From: Bacteroidota bacterium
Lineage (GTDB): Bacteria > Bacteroidota > Bacteroidia > Palsa-965
DNA: 64,000 bases
Direction of reading: 5' to 3'
Assembly: GCA_020402865.1 (NCBI GenBank)
Contig: JADBYT010000001.1
Span: forward strand, 62,001-126,000
Shown here: positions 4,797 to 55,819 of the stretch, in pieces
Layout of the letters: every line of letters begins with the position of its first letter
Numbering within the stretch: position 1 is the stretch's first letter
Notes under the pieces: generated by a model
Told to the model about the DNA's origin: nothing
The model's database searches: none
Seen by the model: the letters and a program-made list of their open reading frames with translations, nothing else
Made by a program: the position numbers and the translations under genes

Positions 4797-4860
4797 GACA
4801 GTCGGGAGATCTGCCCTTAGCGGATCGTTAGAACTAGGTTTCTACCTGCCTGTCTTTTTT
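4797..4860 (+). ncRNA. Candidate 60-nt small RNA: three-way junction plus U-tract
   Basis: The segment folds by hand into a compact three-way junction. The outer helix 4797-4806 pairs with 4845-4854 (ten positions, one mismatch, one G-U). Hairpin 1 is 4810-4814 with 4820-4824, loop CCTTA. Hairpin 2 is 4829-4833 (TAGAA) with 4840-4844 (TTCTA), directly abutting the outer helix. Six T residues follow at 4855-4860, as in a rho-independent terminator. A -7 box lies at the right distance upstream. It resembles no RNA family I can name. The alternative is an elaborate terminator of the GT87 gene, though that would not explain the promoter box. Confidence 0.45.
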
Positions 4861-13906: not shown

Positions 13907-13961
13907 GTCGACATAAATCCTATAAAACCGATAGGAAAAATAGAAAAAACTTGCCCGAAAG

Positions 13962-13994
13962 TTTGGAAATGACATTTATTCAGCTCTACATTTG
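13962..13994 (+). promoter_or_regulatory. Promoter of the sulfite-reduction operon
   Basis: TTTG (13962-13965), 21 nt spacer, then TACATTTG (13987-13994): a full match to the Bacteroidota housekeeping promoter. Transcription should start at about 13999-14000, just before the leader-peptide ATG at 14002. Confidence 0.75.
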
Positions 13995-14001
13995 CACCCG
14001 A

Positions 14002-14061
14002 ATGAAACATAAACACATGCCCGCTTTTTGTTCAACCTGCTGTATGCGAAGCAGGCAATAG
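14002..14061 (+). CDS. Cysteine-codon leader peptide (19 aa) of the sulfite operon
   Basis: ATG at 14002 opens a 19-codon frame, MKHKHMPAFCSTCCMRSRQ, ending with TAG at 14059-14061. Three of five consecutive-region codons (14029, 14038, 14041) are Cys. It begins a few bases after the predicted transcription start and is followed by a mutually exclusive antiterminator/terminator pair. This is the layout of a ribosome-mediated attenuator sensing charged tRNA-Cys. The peptide itself is probably of no use after translation. The frame is too short for gene finders, so it would be missed by routine annotation. Confidence 0.75.
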   Translation: MKHKHMPAFCSTCCMRSRQ

Positions 14062-14108
14062 CGGATTGTGTTCGTATTCAACCAATACAGTTACCCTTCC
14101 GCATTGCC
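14054..14108 (+). promoter_or_regulatory. Antiterminator helix of the cysteine attenuator
   Basis: Bases 14054-14064 pair with 14099-14108: ten Watson-Crick pairs with a single bulged A at 14060. The 5' strand overlaps the last leader codons and the stop codon, and the 3' strand takes bases needed by the terminator loop and stem. A ribosome finishing the leader would cover the 5' strand; one stalled at the Cys codons would leave it free. Confidence 0.7.
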
Positions 14109-14124
14109 GCGAGAAGGGTTTTTT
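14093..14124 (+). terminator. Attenuator terminator upstream of the sulfite operon
   Basis: ACCCTTC (14093-14099) pairs with GAAGGGT (14113-14119), extended by CGC/GCG (14100-14102 with 14109-14111) past one bulged A, and followed by T6. It lies 26 nt before the first operon gene, so it must be bypassed for expression. Confidence 0.8.
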
Positions 14125-14149
14125 ATTTAATAATAGTATAGAAACAACA

Positions 14150-15022
14150 ATGGAAAAACATCTATTAAGCGAATCAGGGCCGGAAGTTTCAGCGGCTATA
14201 TATGGCTTCTGGCGCTGGGAGCAGGAATTGCAGGATACGGATTTACTTACTTCCGTTGTGGAAGAGTGCCAGCAACTGGGAATCACTTCATTTGATCTGA
14301 ATAATCCAAACGGGACAGAACAGGTGGAGAAGAGTTTTGGTAAGCTGATCAAAACCGGTGCAGTGCAGCGTGAAGATGTTGTTATTGCAGCTCGCGCGGG
14401 ATGGCAGAAAAACAAACACAGCGGTAAACTATACGCCGATCTGAGTCAGGAATCGATCCGCAGCACGGTTGACCAGTTGCTCAAAAACCTGGGAACGGAT
14501 TATGTAGATGTATTGTTGCTGCATGATTTTGATCCCTTGTTCAATGCTGAAGAAACGGCATCCGTACTTACCGATCTGGTATTGAAAAGAAAAATTCATT
14601 ACATCGGTTTATCAAATTTCAATGTGTTTCAGCATAAACTGCTTTCTGCTCATTTGAGTATTCCGGTAGTCACAAATCATATCGAGCTGAGTGTACTTCA
14701 AACGGATGCCATACGCGATGGTCGTCTTGATCTGATCCGTGAGCAGTACAGCAAACCGCTTGCACTTGCGCCGCTGGCCGGGGGACGGATTTTAACAGGT
14801 ACCGATGCGCGTACTACAGCAATCCGCTCATTGCTTGCCGAAATTGCAGAACGTTATTCGGCCAATGTAGAGCAGGTGGCTGTGGCATGGCTTTACAAGC
14901 TGCAGGCCCTGCCAATTATCGGTAGTCTTGATCTGCAACGCATTCGCAATGCGGCAAGTGCTCATACTATTACACTGAGCAATGAAGACTGGCATCTCAT
15001 TTATGAATTTGTAAAATCCTGA
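14150..15022 (+). CDS. Aldo/keto reductase-like protein with degraded active site
   Basis: TIM-barrel protein of 290 residues matching the aldo/keto reductase superfamily (YdhF-like group): LGITSFDLNNPNG, LKNLGTDYVDVLLLHDFDPL, KRKIHYIGLSNFN, VEQVAVAWLYKLQALPIIGS. It is the first gene after the attenuator and precedes sulfite reductase by 7 bases. The usual DTAxxYG motif reads DLNNPNG here, so the catalytic Tyr appears lost, and the usual ATK reads AAR, so the catalytic Lys appears lost too; the His in LLLHD is kept. It may therefore not be a classical NADPH reductase. The start at 14150 is chosen because the longer frame crosses the terminator. Confidence 0.8.
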   Translation: MEKHLLSESGPEVSAAIYGFWRWEQELQDTDLLTSVVEECQQLGITSFDLNNPNGTEQVEKSFGKLIKTGAVQREDVVIAARAGWQKNKHSGKLYADLSQESIRSTVDQLLKNLGTDYVDVLLLHDFDPLFNAEETASVLTDLVLKRKIHYIGLSNFNVFQHKLLSAHLSIPVVTNHIELSVLQTDAIRDGRLDLIREQYSKPLALAPLAGGRILTGTDARTTAIRSLLAEIAERYSANVEQVAVAWLYKLQALPIIGSLDLQRIRNAASAHTITLSNEDWHLIYEFVKS

Positions 15023-15029
15023 TTTACCC

Positions 15030-17162
15030 ATGCAGAGTTTTCGTACTGAATTCGAACTCATCAGCCACGGCACTAAAGTGCTTGTTGAAAAAGACATTGT
15101 TGATCTTGCTAAAAAAATCCAGGCTTTCCGTGAAGGGCTTATTGATCCTGAAAAATTCAGAAGTCTGCGCCTTGCACGCGGGGTTTACGGTCAACGGCAG
15201 CAAGGTGTGCAAATGGTGAGGATAAAAATTCCGTTTGGAAAAATTTCATCCGCACAGTTACGTAAAATAGCAGCTCTCAGCGAACAATACTCAAACGGCA
15301 ATCTGCATTTTACAACCCGTCAGGATATTCAGCTTCATCACATCAGTCTGGAGCACACGCCGGAAATCTGGGCAAAGCTTGAACAGGATGAAATTACATT
15401 GCGTGAAGCCTGCGGAAATACTGTACGCAACATTACTTCGCCGGCCGAATCGGGTGTATGGCCTGGTGAAGCCTTTGATGTAAGCGCCTATGCCGATGCC
15501 GTATTCCGCTACTTTCTGCGTAAACCGTTTGCGCAGGAGATGGGACGTAAAATAAAAATTGCATTCTCCAACAGTGAAGCCGATGCCGCATTAACATGGA
15601 TACATGATATTGGCTTTATTGCCACGTACAATGAATCCGGCGAACGCGGCTTCCGTGTGCTTGCAGGTGGCGGACTGGGGGCACAGCCCTTCACGGCAAA
15701 GTTGCTGCATACTTTTTTACCGGCATCCAGACTAATTCCCTTCATCGAATCGGTGCTGCGCATTTTCGACCGTTACGGCGAGCGGCACAGCCGGCATAAG
15801 GCACGCATAAAATACCTTATTCATCAGCTTGGTGTGGACGCATTTCTGCAGTTGCTTGACGAAATAACGCCGGCACTTACCGTGCAGGATTACCACATTG
15901 CATATGATGAATTTGAAAAGCCTTATGTGCGAGAGGCTTCTCCGGCTGCTGTACCTGCAACTCCGCCCGAAGGCTTTTCCGCGTGGATGCGCTCGAATGT
16001 GTTTGAACAGAAGCAGCAAGGATATTACGGTGTATATGTGCGTGTGCCGCTTGGAAATATACATGCCGGAACTGCACGCAAACTTGCAGACTGTATTGAC
16101 AAATACTCGCGCAGTGACGATGCCCGTATTACGATTAATCAGGGGCTGCTGCTGCGTTATGTAACCTTGCCCGAGCTGCCGGCGCTTTACACTGATCTGC
16201 TGGCGGCTGGTCTTGCAAAGCCGGGGTTTGGTTCAGCGGCAGACGTTACTGCATGCCCGGGAACCGATACCTGTAATCTGGCTATTTCAAACAGCACACA
16301 CGTGGCGCTGGCTCTTGGCGAAGTGATTGAAGACGATTTCCCGCATCTGCTTTTCGACAGGCAGCTGGATATTAAAATAAGTGGTTGTATGAATTCATGC
16401 GGGCAGCATGGGCTGGCGGCGATCGGATTTCATGGCAGTTCGTTTAAATCGGGCAATGCGGTGGTGCCTGCGTTGCAGGTGCTTGGCGGCGGCGGAAGTA
16501 CAGGTAACGGCACAGGTCGTCTTGCCGAGAAAATTATAAAAATTCCTTCCCGCCGGGCGCCCGATGCATTACGCAAACTGCTTAATGATTTTGAATCGGA
16601 AAAGCAGCCGGGCGAAACATTCACCGCGTATTTTCATCGCAAAGGGAAGGAGTATTTTTATCAGTTGCTGAAACCGCTGGCAGATCTGAGTAACCTGGAT
16701 GATGAAGCATTCAGGGATTGGGGAGCAGATGAAAAATTCCAGACTGCAATTGGTGTGGGTGAGTGTGCGGGAGTAATGATTGATCTTGTGCAAACGCTCT
16801 TTTTTGAAGCAGATGAGAAAGTGTTATCAGCCCGCGAAGCATTGGCTGAAAGCCGCTTTGCCGACAGTATTTATTTCAGCTACTCAGCGCTTATCCATAC
16901 CGCTAAAGCCTTGCTGCTGAAAAACGGGCATCATGTAAATACCCATCATGCACTTATCGGCGATTTTGAAAAACAATTTATCGAAACCGGAAAAATAAGC
17001 GGACAGGGCAGTTTCAGTGCATTTATCCTTCAGCTTAATTCGCAGCCCGCCTCACCCGGATTTGCTGCCCGCTACCTTGAGCAGGCAGCCGGGTGGATTG
17101 ATTTGCTGAAAACACATGCTGCTGCCGAAAGATCAACGCAAAAAGCCTCCGGACATGAATAA
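15030..17162 (+). CDS. Siroheme sulfite/nitrite reductase with C-terminal HEPN-like extension
   Basis: Ferredoxin-dependent six-electron reductase, here most likely reducing sulfite to sulfide given the operon. Two pseudo-symmetric halves are visible (GNLHFTTRQDIQLHHI near 90-105, DARITINQGLLLRYV near 365-380). The siroheme-Fe4S4 cysteines are in TACPGTDTC (about residues 409 and 415) and SGCMNSCGQHG (about 453 and 457). After the core, a linker with RDWGADEKFQTAIGVGECAG (about 563-582) joins a helical domain of about 110 residues (590-700) resembling HEPN domains (SIYFSYSALIHTAKALLL, NTHHALIGDFEKQFI). Total 710 residues against about 500-570 for the plain enzyme. Nitrite cannot be excluded as substrate. 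Confidence 0.88.
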   Translation: MQSFRTEFELISHGTKVLVEKDIVDLAKKIQAFREGLIDPEKFRSLRLARGVYGQRQQGVQMVRIKIPFGKISSAQLRKIAALSEQYSNGNLHFTTRQDIQLHHISLEHTPEIWAKLEQDEITLREACGNTVRNITSPAESGVWPGEAFDVSAYADAVFRYFLRKPFAQEMGRKIKIAFSNSEADAALTWIHDIGFIATYNESGERGFRVLAGGGLGAQPFTAKLLHTFLPASRLIPFIESVLRIFDRYGERHSRHKARIKYLIHQLGVDAFLQLLDEITPALTVQDYHIAYDEFEKPYVREASPAAVPATPPEGFSAWMRSNVFEQKQQGYYGVYVRVPLGNIHAGTARKLADCIDKYSRSDDARITINQGLLLRYVTLPELPALYTDLLAAGLAKPGFGSAADVTACPGTDTCNLAISNSTHVALALGEVIEDDFPHLLFDRQLDIKISGCMNSCGQHGLAAIGFHGSSFKSGNAVVPALQVLGGGGSTGNGTGRLAEKIIKIPSRRAPDALRKLLNDFESEKQPGETFTAYFHRKGKEYFYQLLKPLADLSNLDDEAFRDWGADEKFQTAIGVGECAGVMIDLVQTLFFEADEKVLSAREALAESRFADSIYFSYSALIHTAKALLLKNGHHVNTHHALIGDFEKQFIETGKISGQGSFSAFILQLNSQPASPGFAARYLEQAAGWIDLLKTHAAAERSTQKASGHE

Positions 17163-17922
17163 AACACCACGGTTAACGGTATTGGGCGCTGGTCCGGGAA
17201 ATGCAGAACTCATTACGCTTAAAGCACTGCGTGTAATTCAAACAGCCGATGTGTTAATGTATGATGCATTGGTGAGTGATGAATTGCTTGAGTTTGTTCC
17301 GGCGCATTGTATCAGGCTGTTTGTGGGGAAACGCAAGGCACGCCATACCTATTCGCAACAGGAAATAAATCGGATGATTGTTTCGTATGCGCATCGCTGC
17401 GGGCATGTTATACGGCTTAAAGGAGGTGATCCGTTTGTGTTTGGACGCGGAGCCGAAGAGCTTGAATATGCTGCAGCGCATGGATTGCACACAGCCTATG
17501 TGCCGGGGTTGAGCAGTGCGGTGGCGGTTCCAGGTACCTGCGGCATTCCGGTTACCTTACGCGGTGTGAGCGAAAGTTTCTGGGTAATTACCGCCACCAC
17601 CGGAAATGCGGCTCTGTCGGCCGATCTGACATTGGCAGCAAGATCAACAGCTACCGTGGTGGTACTCATGGGGCTTGGAAAAGCGGCCGAAATAAGTTCT
17701 GTTTACAGGCAGGCCGGTGCCGGCGACACTCCTGCAGCCGTTATCAGCCACGGAACATTGCAGCAGCAAAATGTGAGTACCGGTGTGGTGGGTAATCTTA
17801 CCACACTGGCCGAAACGCATGATTCGCCGGCAGTGATTGTAATTGGTGAAGTGGTGAAACATAAACTTTCGCTCGCTACGGAGCAAACACTGCTGCACGA
17901 ACTAACCCGTTTTGCCTCATGA
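17155..17922 (+). CDS. cobA: Uroporphyrinogen-III C-methyltransferase (SUMT)
   Basis: Uses two SAM to make precorrin-2, the first committed step to siroheme for the preceding reductase. Motifs: LGAGPGNAELITLKAL at the N-terminus, YDALVSDELLEF, IRLKGGDPFVFGRGAEE, and YVPGLSSAVAVPGTCGIPVTLRG. The 255-residue length fits the stand-alone enzyme. ATG at 17155 overlaps the end of sulfite reductase by 8 bases; an earlier in-frame codon would add 13 residues with no family match. Confidence 0.94.
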   Translation: MNKTPRLTVLGAGPGNAELITLKALRVIQTADVLMYDALVSDELLEFVPAHCIRLFVGKRKARHTYSQQEINRMIVSYAHRCGHVIRLKGGDPFVFGRGAEELEYAAAHGLHTAYVPGLSSAVAVPGTCGIPVTLRGVSESFWVITATTGNAALSADLTLAARSTATVVVLMGLGKAAEISSVYRQAGAGDTPAAVISHGTLQQQNVSTGVVGNLTTLAETHDSPAVIVIGEVVKHKLSLATEQTLLHELTRFAS

Positions 17923-18524
17923 GCAGCATTGAAGCCGGCAATCCGCTTTTTCCTGTCTTTCTCAAGCTCGAACAATTGCACGTGCTGCTGGTTGGAGGCG
18001 GATTTGTAGCCTGCGAAAAACTTACTGCATTGTTGCAGAATTCGCCCCGTGCACAGGTTACGGTAGTAGCCATTTCGGTATTGCCTGAATTTCGTCTTAT
18101 TGCTCAGGGTTTTGATGCGGTAGTGATTATCGAACGGGCTTTTGAAGCGACTGATCTGGAAGGAAAAGATCTCGTAATTCTTGCTACGGGCAGCATACAA
18201 ACCAGTGCACAAATACGCACGCAGGCCAGGCAACACGGCCTGCTTGTAAATACAGCTGATACTCCTGATCTCTGTGATTTTTATCTCGGATCAGTAGTGA
18301 GAAAAGGTGCAGTGAAAATTGCCATTTCCACAAACGGGAAATCACCCACAGTGGCTAAACGTCTCCGCGAAATTTTTGAAGAGGCATTCCCCGAAGAAAT
18401 CAACGAATCACTTAATCACCTGCAAACCATACGCAGTTATTTGAAAGGCGACTTCGCCGATAAGGTGAAACAACTCAACCAATTCACCCGATTACTTTCC
18501 TCACAAAAGAAAAAAAGTTCATGA
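17919..18524 (+). CDS. Precorrin-2 dehydrogenase / sirohydrochlorin ferrochelatase (Met8/SirC type)
   Basis: Completes siroheme: NAD-dependent oxidation of precorrin-2 to sirohydrochlorin, with or without iron insertion. The NAD-binding motif is HVLLVGGGFVACEKL; the family segment NTADTPDLCDFYLGSVVRKG and AISTNGKSPTVAKRLR follow. At 201 residues it is the short Met8/SirC form, not full CysG. Whether it also has chelatase activity cannot be told. It overlaps cobA by 4 bases and the next gene by 4 bases. Confidence 0.9.
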   Translation: MSSIEAGNPLFPVFLKLEQLHVLLVGGGFVACEKLTALLQNSPRAQVTVVAISVLPEFRLIAQGFDAVVIIERAFEATDLEGKDLVILATGSIQTSAQIRTQARQHGLLVNTADTPDLCDFYLGSVVRKGAVKIAISTNGKSPTVAKRLREIFEEAFPEEINESLNHLQTIRSYLKGDFADKVKQLNQFTRLLSSQKKKSS

Positions 18525-19531
18525 TTACCACAGACCTTATCATCATCGGGGCCGGCCCGGTAGGCTTGTTTGCTGTATTTGAAGCCGGACTGCTGAAAAT
18601 GCGATGTCACCTCATCGATTACCTTCCCCAGCCCGGCGGGCAACTTTCCGAAATTTATCCCCGGAAACCAATTTATGATATTCCGGGTTTTCCAACTGTG
18701 CTGGCGCAGGAATTAATTGACAATCTGCTGCAACAGGCTGCCCCGTTTAAACCCGCTTTTACACTTGGTGAACGTGTGGAAACAATTCAGAAAATTGATG
18801 AATGTAATTTTCAGGTTACAACAAATTTAGGCACAATTGTTTCGGGAAAGGCCGTGGTAATTGCGGGCGGACTGGGTTGTTTTGAACCGCGAAAGCCTGA
18901 AGTGAAAGGCCTTGATGCATTTGAGAACGGTAAAGGCATACATTATTTTGTGCGTGAACCGGAATATTTCAGAAACAGGAAAGTTGTAATTGCTGGTGGT
19001 GGCGACAGTGCACTCGACTGGACACTGCAGCTGGCTTCTGTATGCAGTTCGCTTACGTTGGTGCATCGCAGCGATCAGTTCAGAGGTGCGCCCGACAGTG
19101 CGGAGCGCGTAAAAGCATTGGCCGAATCAGGTTTAATCAATCTTCTTTTGCATACATCCGTTGAAAATGTAAACGGACTCGGCCGGTTAAGTACGGTGAG
19201 TGTGAAAAATCTCAATACACAGGCCATACATGATATTGAAGCCGATGAACTGATTATTCTCTTTGGTCTCAGCCCCAAACTGGGGCCCGCCTCACACTGG
19301 GGGCTTGATATTGAGAAGCAGGCCGTGGTGGTCAATCCGGAAGACTATTCTACTTCTGTAAAAGGGATTTATGCGATTGGTGATATCAACACGTACAAAA
19401 ATAAACTCAAGCTCATTCTTTGCGGATTTCATGAAGCAGCCATGATGAGCCATAGCGCCTATAAATACATCAATCCCGGTGTGCATTACACCATGAAGTA
19501 CACCACAGTGAATGGTGTAAATACATTTTAA
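18521..19531 (+). CDS. Thioredoxin-reductase-like ferredoxin-NADP+ reductase
   Basis: FAD flavoprotein passing electrons from NADPH to ferredoxin. Seen: FAD-binding IIIGAGPVGLFAVFEAG at the N-terminus, LPQPGGQLSEIYPRKPIYDIPGFP, NADPH-binding VVIAGGGDSALDWTLQL (about 150-165), and the C-terminal KGIYAIGDINTYKNKLKLIL. There is no CxxC redox pair, which separates it from thioredoxin reductase and matches the Bacillus/Chlorobium FNR type. It lies between siroheme synthesis and a ferredoxin gene and would supply electrons to the sulfite reductase. Confidence 0.93.
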   Translation: MITTDLIIIGAGPVGLFAVFEAGLLKMRCHLIDYLPQPGGQLSEIYPRKPIYDIPGFPTVLAQELIDNLLQQAAPFKPAFTLGERVETIQKIDECNFQVTTNLGTIVSGKAVVIAGGLGCFEPRKPEVKGLDAFENGKGIHYFVREPEYFRNRKVVIAGGGDSALDWTLQLASVCSSLTLVHRSDQFRGAPDSAERVKALAESGLINLLLHTSVENVNGLGRLSTVSVKNLNTQAIHDIEADELIILFGLSPKLGPASHWGLDIEKQAVVVNPEDYSTSVKGIYAIGDINTYKNKLKLILCGFHEAAMMSHSAYKYINPGVHYTMKYTTVNGVNTF

Positions 19532-19534
19532 CGT

Positions 19535-19849
19535 ATGAATGATATTGCTGTTGAAATAGAAACCGGGGGTGAATTGCAGCGCGTTGATGTGCCGGATAAT
19601 ATCGCGCTTAGTCTGATGGAGTTGCTCAAAGGCATGGAGATAAAAGGAATAGAAGGAACCTGTGGCGGCATGGCCTTGTGTGCCACCTGCCATGTACGCA
19701 TCCTTTCAGCGGAGCCCCCGCTGCCCCCGGCCGGCGATGAGGAACTGAATATGCTGGATACGCTGCCTGTTGTGTACACCAATTCACGGCTGGCCTGTCA
19801 GATCAGGCTTGCACCGGGGCAGCAGCAGATCAGGCTCTGTGTACCGTGA
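19535..19849 (+). CDS. 2Fe-2S ferredoxin (adrenodoxin-like)
   Basis: Small soluble electron carrier of 104 residues. The cluster ligands are in GTCGGMALCATCHV (three Cys) and the fourth in SRLACQIRL, with an acidic PAGDEELNMLD segment between them. It starts 3 bases after the FNR stop and closes the operon, giving a self-contained NADPH-FNR-ferredoxin-sulfite reductase chain. Confidence 0.94.
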   Translation: MNDIAVEIETGGELQRVDVPDNIALSLMELLKGMEIKGIEGTCGGMALCATCHVRILSAEPPLPPAGDEELNMLDTLPVVYTNSRLACQIRLAPGQQQIRLCVP

Positions 19850-54171: not shown

Positions 54172-54270
54172 ATGAGACCTGTTGTGTCCGCAGCCCGAAT
54201 TACTTACATGTGCGCCAGCATGTGTATGTGTCGTTGCATCCGCATCGAACCGGGAACACCTGCGTCATAA
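54172..54270 (+). CDS. Met/Cys-rich leader peptide of hom (32 aa)
   Basis: A 32-codon frame from ATG 54172 to TAA 54268-54270. Codons 13-22 read MCASMCMCRC: three Met and four Cys in ten. It lies between a good promoter and a strong terminator (54298-54330) and upstream of homoserine dehydrogenase. This is the expected form of a leader peptide that senses methionine/cysteine supply by ribosome stalling. Such a density of Met and Cys by chance is very unlikely. It is too short for gene finders. Confidence 0.7.
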   Translation: MRPVVSAARITYMCASMCMCRCIRIEPGTPAS

Positions 54271-54310
54271 CTAAGTTGATTGTTGGTGTGTTGAGCGAAG
54301 CCCTCCCGGT
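54249..54310 (+). promoter_or_regulatory. Candidate antiterminator of the hom attenuator
   Basis: ACCGGGA (54249-54255, leader codons 26-28) pairs exactly with TCCCGGT (54304-54310), the 5' arm of the terminator. ACACC (54256-54260) can also pair with GGTGT (54285-54289), stacking on the first helix. The pairing excludes the terminator. Confidence 0.55.
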
Positions 54311-54330
54311 AAAACCGGAGGGCTTTTTTT
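54298..54330 (+). terminator. Attenuator terminator upstream of hom
   Basis: Twelve-pair stem with one bulged C (54298-54310 with 54314-54325), loop AAA, then T7 (54324-54330). No complete gene lies between the promoter and this terminator except the leader peptide. Confidence 0.85.
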
Positions 54331-54391: not shown

Positions 54392-54472
54392 ATGAGACCC
54401 GATTTGCGATCAGCCATTCACTCAAACCACCAGCTACCCGCCTGCCGAATGCGCGGATGTTGTAAAACGTAA
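54392..54472 (+). CDS. Possible second leader peptide upstream of hom (26 aa)
   Basis: A 26-codon frame from ATG 54392 to TAA 54470-54472, ending ACRMRGCCKT (three Cys, one Met). Like the first leader it begins MRP, and its end resembles the Cys/Met/Arg end of the sulfite-operon leader (CCMRSRQ). No T-run terminator follows; instead CCCGGCGG (54534-54541) pairs with CCGCCGGG (54580-54587) 14 bases before the hom start. It could control translation, or be a chance frame. Confidence 0.4.
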   Translation: MRPDLRSAIHSNHQLPACRMRGCCKT

Positions 54473-54601: not shown

Positions 54602-55819
54602 ATGAGTAACGAAAAACTCTCAGTAGCCCTTTTCGGGTTCGGATGCGTGGGGCAGGGGCTCTACGATGTGTTAAACCATTCAGAAGTATTTCAGGCTGAT
54701 ATTGCCCGTATTTGTGTGAAGGATCCGGCAAAGGAACGCCGGGTAAACAGTTCGCTGATTACCTTTAATAAAGAAGATATTCTGGGCCGCAACGATATTG
54801 ACGTGGTGGTGGAAATGATTACCGATACCGATGAGGCCTACCGCATAGTAAGCAGGGCTTTAAGTAATGGTGTAAATGTGGTAAGTGCCAGCAAAAAAAT
54901 GCTTGCTACCTATTTCAGCGAACTGCATCGTTTGCAGGAGGCGCATGGTACGGCGCTCATATACGAAGGATCGGCCGGAGGAAGTATTCCTATTATCCGC
55001 ACACTCGAAGAGTATTACGATAATGAATTGCTGAGCAGCATACGCGGCATCCTCAACGGCACCACCAACTACATCCTCACGCGAATGGAACTTGAAGGCC
55101 GCGATTATGCGGATGTGCTCCGTGATGCCCAGCAAAGCGGTTTTGCCGAAGCGGATCCCTGGTCGGATGTGGCCGGATACGATACAATGTATAAAACACT
55201 GCTGCTGAGTATTCATGCCTTTGGTATTGTGCTTAAGCCCGAACAGATTCTTAATCTGGGCATCCAGCACATCAGCTTTGCCGATATCCGCTACGCCCGT
55301 GAAAAAGGGCTGCGCATACGTCTCATTGGCTATGCCGCAAAAGCAGGCGATAAATTCAGAGTTTACGTATTGCCGCATTTTGTAAAAGCCGATGATGAAC
55401 TGTATAAAGTGCAATACGAATACAACGGCATTGAGGTAGAAGGCGCATACTCGTGCAAACAAACATTTACCGGTAAAGGCGCCGGAAGCCATCCCACCGG
55501 AAGCGCAGTACTGTCTGATATTTCGGCACTTACCTATAATTATAAGTATGCCTATAAAAAGCTCAACAAACTTCGACGGCTCAAAGAAGAACAGGGGCAA
55601 ACCGGGAACGATGAAACGTTACTCGACAAAGACTTTACCCTCAAACTCTACATTCGCTATCAGTCGAAAGACGAACTCGCAGGGCTTGATATACGCCGCG
55701 TGGAAGAAGAGTATAAGTCGGCCGATGTAAATTTCATTATTGCTGAAGTGGGTTTTCAATCGCTTTATACTTTGCGTGATAACAAGGCTCAAAAACTCTT
55801 TATCTGTGTGCTGGCGTAG
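54602..55819 (+). CDS. hom: Homoserine dehydrogenase
   Basis: Reduces aspartate semialdehyde to homoserine, precursor of methionine, threonine and isoleucine. NAD(P) motif ALFGFGCVGQGLYDVL; VVSASKKMLA; catalytic domain GSAGGSIPIIRTLEEYY, IRGILNGTTNYILTRME and FAEADPWSDVAGYDTMYKTL with the conserved Asp and Lys. 405 residues, monofunctional; no aspartokinase is fused. C-terminal residues from about 310 look like an extra regulatory or ACT-like part. The Met/Cys leader upstream suggests its main use here is methionine synthesis. Confidence 0.9.
   Translation: MSNEKLSVALFGFGCVGQGLYDVLNHSEVFQADIARICVKDPAKERRVNSSLITFNKEDILGRNDIDVVVEMITDTDEAYRIVSRALSNGVNVVSASKKMLATYFSELHRLQEAHGTALIYEGSAGGSIPIIRTLEEYYDNELLSSIRGILNGTTNYILTRMELEGRDYADVLRDAQQSGFAEADPWSDVAGYDTMYKTLLLSIHAFGIVLKPEQILNLGIQHISFADIRYAREKGLRIRLIGYAAKAGDKFRVYVLPHFVKADDELYKVQYEYNGIEVEGAYSCKQTFTGKGAGSHPTGSAVLSDISALTYNYKYAYKKLNKLRRLKEEQGQTGNDETLLDKDFTLKLYIRYQSKDELAGLDIRRVEEEYKSADVNFIIAEVGFQSLYTLRDNKAQKLFICVLA

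What the first reader, a model, noticed from the sequence alone, without database searches (positions are those of the whole stretch)
13962..14152. Complete cysteine-codon attenuator in front of the sulfite-reduction operon
Seen: a consensus promoter; a 19-codon frame MKHKHMPAFCSTCCMRSRQ with Cys codons at 14029, 14038 and 14041; an antiterminator helix (14054-14064 with 14099-14108, ten pairs, one bulged A) overlapping its stop codon; and a competing terminator (14093-14124) with T6 just before the first gene. The geometry fits classical attenuation: a ribosome at the stop codon hides 14054-14064 and allows termination, while a ribosome stalled at the Cys codons frees it. Leader-peptide attenuation is well known in Proteobacteria (trp, his) and Cys leaders are known in actinobacteria. 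A fully formed Cys-tRNA attenuator on siroheme sulfite reductase in Bacteroidota is, as far as I know, little described.
Basis: partly seen in the sequence, partly recalled or inferred. Interest (0 to 1): 0.9.

Follow-up and report, generated by a model that had tools for sequence, protein, structure and literature searches.

The report
Cysteine leader-peptide attenuator on sulfite reductase
Just before its sulfite-reduction genes, this Bacteroidota genome carries a short reading frame rich in cysteine codons that very probably lets the ribosome sense cysteine shortage and switch the genes on by preventing early transcription stop; the same device sits before this gene in most relatives examined, and I found it in no RNA-family library.

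Summary
In the window: a Bacteroidota promoter (TTTG-N21-TACATTTG), a 19-codon frame MKHKHMPAFCSTCCMRSRQ starting about 3 nt after the predicted transcription start, a 10-bp antiterminator overlapping its stop codon, and a terminator with T6. Downstream lie an aldo/keto reductase, siroheme sulfite reductase (SiR) and the siroheme and electron-transfer genes.

At least 59 of 99 homologous SiR loci carry the same arrangement. A promoter + Cys frame + terminator search finds 47 of 99 SiR upstream regions against 3 hits in 2,161 kb of background from the same loci. Antiterminator pairing is specific to each locus (permutation z = -6.8, 0/20,000), so the two arms covary. Rfam has no match.

New points: Met codons are also enriched beside the Cys codons (25% against 6%; 2.3% in His leaders of related genomes), so the sensor may read both sulfur amino acids. 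Several relatives carry two such attenuators in series. A second Cys/Met leader lies in this window at 54172, before homoserine dehydrogenase. The genome also has a His leader and a weaker Trp leader.

Mechanism is inferred, not measured. Novelty: new variant of classical ribosome-mediated attenuation.

The parts
13918..13936 (.). Inverted repeat TCCTAT-N7-ATAGGA upstream of the promoter, candidate protein-binding site (possibly Rrf2-type); tentative
   Evidence: Read directly. CTAT-N0-10-ATAG occurs upstream of 8 of 59 leader loci (2.3 expected by shuffling) and 11 of 40 leaderless SiR loci (3.2 expected); in several near relatives a similar palindrome lies about 65-72 nt before the -7 box. 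Rrf2 genes lie next to SiR in L032, L034, L056, L091.
13962..13994 (+). Bacteroidota sigma-A promoter: TTTG (13962-13965), 21-nt spacer, TACATTTG (13987-13994); predicted start about 13999
   Evidence: Sequence; consensus from PMC7366714 and PMC9723704.
14002..14061 (+). Leader-peptide frame MKHKHMPAFCSTCCMRSRQ*, Cys codons 14029, 14038, 14041; Met codon directly after Cys-Cys
   Evidence: Translation; homologous Cys-rich leaders in at least 59 of 99 SiR loci.
14012..14071 (+). Hairpin of the leader itself (inner CCUGCU/AGCAGG around the Cys codons), would hide the antiterminator arm when no ribosome translates; not supported as a conserved helix
   Evidence: Minimum-free-energy fold -21.6 kcal/mol, z = -2.4; cross-locus test not significant.
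14054..14108 (+). Antiterminator: 14054-14064 with 14099-14108, ten pairs, A14060 bulged; 5' arm overlaps the stop codon
   Evidence: Pairs verified; fold z = -4.8; own antiterminator energy of this locus better than any foreign arm; class-wide permutation z = -6.8.
14093..14124 (+). Intrinsic terminator hairpin 14093-14119 with T6
   Evidence: homologous terminators at the same place in the relatives.
14150..15022 (+). First operon gene, aldo/keto reductase (PF00248)
   Evidence: Pfam.
15030..17162 (+). Siroheme sulfite reductase (NIR_SIR, NIR_SIR_ferr) with C-terminal HEPN domain
   Evidence: Pfam.
17158..19849 (+). Rest of operon: uroporphyrinogen methyltransferase (TP_methylase), siroheme synthase dehydrogenase, pyridine-nucleotide reductase, 2Fe-2S ferredoxin
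   Evidence: Pfam, frames.
54172..54327 (+). Second leader of the same kind in the window: MRPVVSAARITYMCASMCMCRCIRIEPGTPAS* (54172-54270), antiterminator ACCGGGA/TCCCGGT, terminator 54298-54327, upstream of homoserine dehydrogenase (54602-55819)
   Evidence: orthologous place in three congeners holds Cys leaders followed by SiR and later homoserine dehydrogenase.

Best explanation
This is a classical ribosome-mediated transcription attenuator that senses charged cysteinyl-tRNA. RNA polymerase starts at about 13999 and a ribosome begins the leader frame almost at the 5' end. With enough Cys-tRNA the ribosome quickly reaches the stop codon at 14059-14061 and covers roughly up to 14072, hiding 14054-14064; the terminator 14093-14119 then forms and transcription ends at about 14124. 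When Cys-tRNA is short the ribosome stalls at 14029, 14038 or 14041, its leading edge lies at or before about 14055, 14054-14064 pairs with 14099-14108, the terminator cannot form and the sulfite-reduction operon is transcribed. With no translation the leader folds on itself (14012-14071) and termination is the default. Shown: the anatomy, its conservation and the covariation of the antiterminator arms. Inferred: translation of the leader, stalling, and the response to cysteine. Met codons next to the Cys codons may add a methionine input.
For: Anatomy and energies. Leaders with Cys frame and terminator at at least 59 of 99 SiR loci; promoter + Cys frame + terminator at 47 of 99 SiR loci against 3 in 2,161 kb of background. 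Own antiterminator pairing -12.7 against -10.3 kcal/mol for permuted partners, z = -6.8, 0/20,000; controls with reversed arms or with the Cys region not significant. Cys is 13.5% of leader residues against 2.3% in 21 His leaders of this and related genomes. 50 of 60 leaders contain Cys-Cys. Same genome: His leader MQALVHIHHHHATATRVAVH before hisG with an antiterminator reached by 1 of 200 shuffles, and Trp leader MKMNLSINKHWWHTSEYSNV with terminator before trpE. Rfam finds no riboswitch or T-box here.
Against: No RNA, ribosome or expression data. The antiterminator pairs with the upper terminator stem and loop, so ACCCTT could in principle still meet AAGGGT. Full-length folding slightly favours the terminator (-23.8 against -20.7 kcal/mol), so the switch must be kinetic. 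The 1:2 protector hairpin is not supported across loci. Some relatives lack the leader (Cytophagales, L033) or carry one without Cys (L085). The sulfate-activation operon Rrf2-cysH-cysD-cysN of this genome has no such leader. The Trp leader's antiterminator in this genome is no better than shuffles.
Confidence: 0.9

Rival explanations
1. The attenuator is bivalent: stalling at either Cys or Met codons relieves termination, so the operon answers to shortage of both sulfur amino acids, as the E. coli thr leader answers to Thr and Ile (own knowledge).
For: Non-start Met is 11.6% of leader residues against 2.3% in His leaders of this and related genomes (p = 7e-10); 25% within three codons of a Cys against 6% elsewhere; in-frame ATG 15.3% against 1.0-1.6% out of frame; 56 of 60 leaders have Met within three codons of Cys. 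The 54172 leader precedes homoserine dehydrogenase, a methionine-precursor gene.
Against: Met codons can also serve as alternative starts, and stalling on Met codons in these bacteria is untested. The leaders are homologous, so residue counts are not independent. In this leader only M15 directly adjoins the Cys pair.
Confidence: 0.4
2. A metabolite-binding riboswitch (for example SAM) or T-box with an incidental Cys-rich frame.
For: Long structured leader with terminator before sulfur genes.
Against: No Rfam family at any useful score; sequence diverges widely while the Cys frame and the 2:3 complementarity persist.
Confidence: 0.03
3. The Cys/Met-rich nascent peptide senses something other than tRNA charging (copper, zinc, redox state or antibiotic-type ribosome arrest).
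For: Cys/Met clusters such as MMCCMMC resemble metal-binding sequences.
Against: The downstream genes are sulfite reduction in the loci collected (they were chosen by SiR); peptide sequences vary strongly in length and order apart from Cys and Met content; amino-acid-specific His leaders with the same layout occur in the same group of genomes.
Confidence: 0.05
4. The terminator is simply constitutive and the operon is controlled at initiation by an Rrf2-type (CymR/IscR-like) protein at the upstream palindrome.
For: Palindrome near the promoter here and in relatives; Rrf2 genes beside SiR in relatives; the only strong Rrf2 hit of this genome is next to cysH/cysD.
Against: Does not explain the conserved Cys codons or the covarying antiterminator. 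The two layers can coexist.
Confidence: 0.04

Closest known systems
Classical trp/his leader-peptide transcription attenuation of Proteobacteria
   Same: Short frame with regulatory codons, stop codon within the antiterminator arm, mutually exclusive antiterminator and intrinsic terminator just before the first gene.
   Different: Senses Cys (perhaps Cys plus Met), Bacteroidota promoter and near-leaderless start, conserved protector hairpin not supported.
Polycysteine leaderless short ORFs of mycobacteria (Canestrari et al. 2020, known here from its citation in PMC13236596; candidates also in PMC4633059 and PMC1262725)
   Same: Cys-codon runs in a leaderless or nearly leaderless uORF before sulfur genes.
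   Different: The mycobacterial upstream regions lack conserved terminator hairpins (PMC1262725) and are cited as translational attenuation (PMC13236596); here there is an intrinsic terminator and a covarying antiterminator, hence transcriptional control. Independent origin is likely (inference).
Amino-acid leader attenuators predicted in Flavobacterium psychrophilum (PMC9723704)
   Same: Same phylum and promoter type; leader-peptide attenuation inferred before amino-acid operons; structured 5' elements include one before hisG.
   Different: No cysteine or sulfite-reductase attenuator is mentioned in the main text.
Lopatovskaya et al. 2010 and Lyubetsky et al. 2014 comparative surveys of attenuation (titles seen in PMC4833913; papers not held)
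   Same: Comparative prediction of attenuation, the second about genes tied to sulfur metabolism, judging by titles.
   Different: Content could not be read; a Bacteroidota Cys attenuator may already be listed there.

Membership tests
Ribosome-mediated (leader-peptide) transcription attenuator | Short frame with codons of the operon's end product | tested here: met
   Three Cys codons in 19; Cys 13.5% across 60 leaders.
Ribosome-mediated (leader-peptide) transcription attenuator | Intrinsic terminator between leader frame and first gene | tested here: met
   14093-14124; relatives.
Ribosome-mediated (leader-peptide) transcription attenuator | Alternative antiterminator helix that a ribosome at the stop codon would mask, kept by covariation | tested here: met
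   Pairs verified; locus-specific pairing z = -6.8.
Ribosome-mediated (leader-peptide) transcription attenuator | 1:2 protector or pause hairpin | tested here: inconclusive
   Present in the window fold but not above permuted pairing across loci.
Ribosome-mediated (leader-peptide) transcription attenuator | Leader is translated and read-through rises when the amino acid is short | not testable with these tools
   Needs Ribo-seq, Term-seq or reporters.
Mycobacterial polycysteine attenuator | Leaderless or nearly leaderless Cys-rich sORF upstream of sulfur genes | tested here: met
   Predicted 5' UTR 3 nt here, median 6 nt across leaders.
Mycobacterial polycysteine attenuator | Control without an intrinsic terminator (translational or Rho-type) | tested here: not met
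   Clear intrinsic terminator.
Known Rfam riboswitch, T-box or leader family | Covariance-model match | tested here: not met
   No relevant match at gathering score or at E <= 10 for the element; none in nine relatives.

The most novel reading that the evidence does not exclude
A previously uncatalogued Bacteroidota attenuator family that reads both cysteine and methionine codons, is used singly or as two attenuators in series on one transcript, and can stay in place when the sulfite-reductase genes behind it are lost, leaving homoserine dehydrogenase as the controlled gene.
Probability: 0.35. Interest if true: 0.75.

Novelty: new variant of a known kind. Interest (0 to 1): 0.6.

Why it matters
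It supplies an RNA-level cysteine sensor for sulfur assimilation in a large phylum where such control has hardly been described, with a concrete switch that can be tested in culturable genera (Pedobacter, Mucilaginibacter, Chitinophaga). The Met enrichment makes a two-amino-acid sensor directly testable, and the tandem copies offer a natural test of serial attenuation by leader peptides. It also shows that a sizeable regulatory class is absent from Rfam, probably because the sequences diverge while codon content and complementarity persist.

Tried and rejected
Rfam at relaxed threshold: only chance hits. A strict DNA pattern (ATGTGYTGY ... GCCCTTCCG ... AAGGGCTTTTT) over 395 genomes found nothing, because sequence is not conserved at that level. 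Conserved 1:2 hairpin: not supported. Cys leaders before the own genome's Rrf2-cysH-cysD-cysN, cysK-like and metX-like genes: none found. A Leu leader before the leuA-like gene: none convincing. A SAM riboswitch before the metX-like and cysK-like loci: no Rfam hit. Transfer of the window's SiR from a distant clade: the tree puts it near its own family with weak support (0.83), so not claimed. A five-sequence DNA alignment and a Mucilaginibacter alignment were too gappy or mixed in register for pair counting; the cross-locus permutation test was used instead. The promoter palindrome as a single shared motif: only partly supported. My first automatic search missed the window's own leader because its terminator loop limit was 12 nt; widened to 16.

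Full report
What is there. The region 13962-14152 was read directly. A Bacteroidota sigma-A promoter (TTTG 13962-13965, 21-nt spacer, TACATTTG 13987-13994) predicts a start at about 13999, using the -12 to -5 placement of TAnnTTTG reported for Flavobacterium psychrophilum (PMC9723704) and the TTTG/TAnnTTTG consensus of Bacteroides (PMC7366714). The first ATG is at 14002, so the leader mRNA is almost leaderless. The frame encodes MKHKHMPAFCSTCCMRSRQ with stop TAG 14059-14061. All ten antiterminator pairs (14054-14064 with 14099-14108, A14060 bulged) and the terminator pairs were printed and are Watson-Crick. The antiterminator segment folds at z = -4.8 and the whole leader at z = -3.5 against dinucleotide shuffles. 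No TAnnTTTG promoter lies between the leader and the first gene.

What it controls. Pfam names the operon genes as aldo/keto reductase, siroheme sulfite reductase with a C-terminal HEPN domain, tetrapyrrole methylase (CobA-type), siroheme-synthase dehydrogenase, pyridine-nucleotide reductase and 2Fe-2S ferredoxin. The product, sulfide, goes to cysteine and on to methionine (established knowledge of the pathway).

Conservation. SiR homologues were collected from genomes of relatives and from 80 contigs. Upstream of most of them lies a short frame rich in Cys codons followed by a terminator, for example ...MYCCMRSDRPWL* in Mucilaginibacter...MCLYMCCMYP* in Pedobacter...MCMCCWEHSTD* in Chitinophaga, and ...MCCCMRRCC* or ...MMCCWMRCC* in MAGs whose operon begins, as here, with the aldo/keto reductase. 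A search for TAnnTTTG + ATG frame with at least two Cys + terminator finds 47 of 99 SiR upstream regions and only 3 hits in 2,161 kb of other sequence from the same loci; with relaxed promoter and loop rules at least 59 of 99 loci qualify, after dropping spurious hits at L055 and L060. On a SiR tree the leader is present almost throughout the window's clade, in Chitinophaga and in most of the Mucilaginibacter/Pedobacter clade, and absent in Cytophagales.

The switch. If the antiterminator is real, each locus's post-Cys segment should pair better with its own terminator arm than with another locus's. It does: -12.7 kcal/mol own, -10.3 permuted, z = -6.8, 0 of 20,000 permutations as good (z = -6.7 after dereplication to 52). 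Reversed arms and the Cys-codon segment as partner show nothing. For the window no foreign arm is better. The upstream 1:2 hairpin is visible in the window but is not supported across loci. With a footprint edge about 16 nt beyond the first base of the P-site codon (own knowledge), a ribosome with the stop codon in its A site covers to about 14072 and masks the whole arm; one waiting at 14041 covers to about 14054, and one at 14029 or 14038 leaves the arm free. Folding of the nascent RNA to 14108 gives the antiterminator; the complete RNA slightly favours the terminator, as expected of a kinetic switch.

Internal controls. The same genome has MQALVHIHHHHATATRVAVH plus terminator before hisG, with an antiterminator reached by 1 of 200 shuffles, and MKMNLSINKHWWHTSEYSNV plus terminator before trpE, whose antiterminator is no better than shuffles. 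His leaders of the same layout were found at 21 of 30 hisG loci of this and related genomes. The phylum therefore very probably uses this kind of control; one transcriptome study says so for amino-acid operons without naming cysteine in its main text (PMC9723704).

Extensions found. (a) Met codons: 11.6% of non-start leader residues, 25% within three codons of a Cys against 6% elsewhere, against 2.3% in His leaders; the excess is in frame only. A Cys-plus-Met sensor is plausible but the leaders are homologous, so the counts are not independent. (b) Tandem attenuators: L003, L010, L016 and L036 were read in full and show leader-terminator-leader-terminator in series; in L010 no TTTG-type promoter element separates the two. 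Other loci (L004, L020, L058) look similar from the automatic lists. (c) A second leader in this window at 54172-54270 with antiterminator ACCGGGA/TCCCGGT and terminator precedes homoserine dehydrogenase. In three congeners the same place holds SiR, cobA and other genes of the pathway, then homoserine dehydrogenase (71-73% identical to the window's); Cys leaders stand before SiR there, in tandem in two of them. The window's organism thus appears to have lost SiR from that place, keeping the leader, and has its SiR operon at 14-20 kb. This history is inferred from gene order, not from a tree.

Comparison and novelty. Working principle: classical ribosome-mediated transcription attenuation. Cys leaders are known in actinobacteria, but without conserved terminators in mycobacteria (PMC1262725) and cited as translational there (PMC13236596, citing Canestrari 2020). 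In nine searches of the held literature I found no Cys attenuator in Bacteroidota, though two relevant surveys (Lopatovskaya 2010, Lyubetsky 2014) are not held. Rfam has no model. I file it as a new variant of a known kind. Shown: anatomy, conservation, covariation. Inferred: translation, stalling, response to cysteine, any Met input.

Noticed in passing
window 54172-54327 (+): Second Cys/Met leader MRPVVSAARITYMCASMCMCRCIRIEPGTPAS with terminator, before homoserine dehydrogenase; at the place where congeners have leaders and SiR.
   Followed up: partly
window 54392-54466 (+): A third frame ending in Cys codons, MRPDLRSAIHSNHQLPACRMRGCC, between that leader and homoserine dehydrogenase; no clear terminator with a T run follows, possibly a decayed leader.
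   Followed up: no
L003:405-710, L010 and L016 upstream of SiR, L036:940-1270: Two Cys attenuators in series on what looks like one transcript.
   Followed up: partly
L117 about 1212, L118 about 1251 (own genome): His leader before hisG and Trp leader before trpE with terminators; His leaders are common in relatives.
   Followed up: partly
window 13918-13936 and relatives: Palindrome TCCTAT-N7-ATAGGA upstream of the promoter, similar ones in several relatives about 65-72 nt before the -7 box, and Rrf2 genes beside SiR in L032, L034, L056, L091: a possible second, protein-based layer of control.
   Followed up: partly
L085:1561-1695: A Mucilaginibacter leader whose frame (MKKEDITYYKIYIYGLMQSDRS) has no Cys codons while the terminator is kept.
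   Followed up: no
window 4799-4852 (+): Rfam match to DUF3800-VI RNA, 44.5 bits.
   Followed up: no
window about 16791-16997 (+): Sulfite reductase carries a C-terminal HEPN domain (residues 588-656), function here unclear.
   Followed up: no
L116:13424-13510 (+): Flavo-1 RNA match on the contig stretch that carries the own genome's sulfate-activation genes.
   Followed up: no
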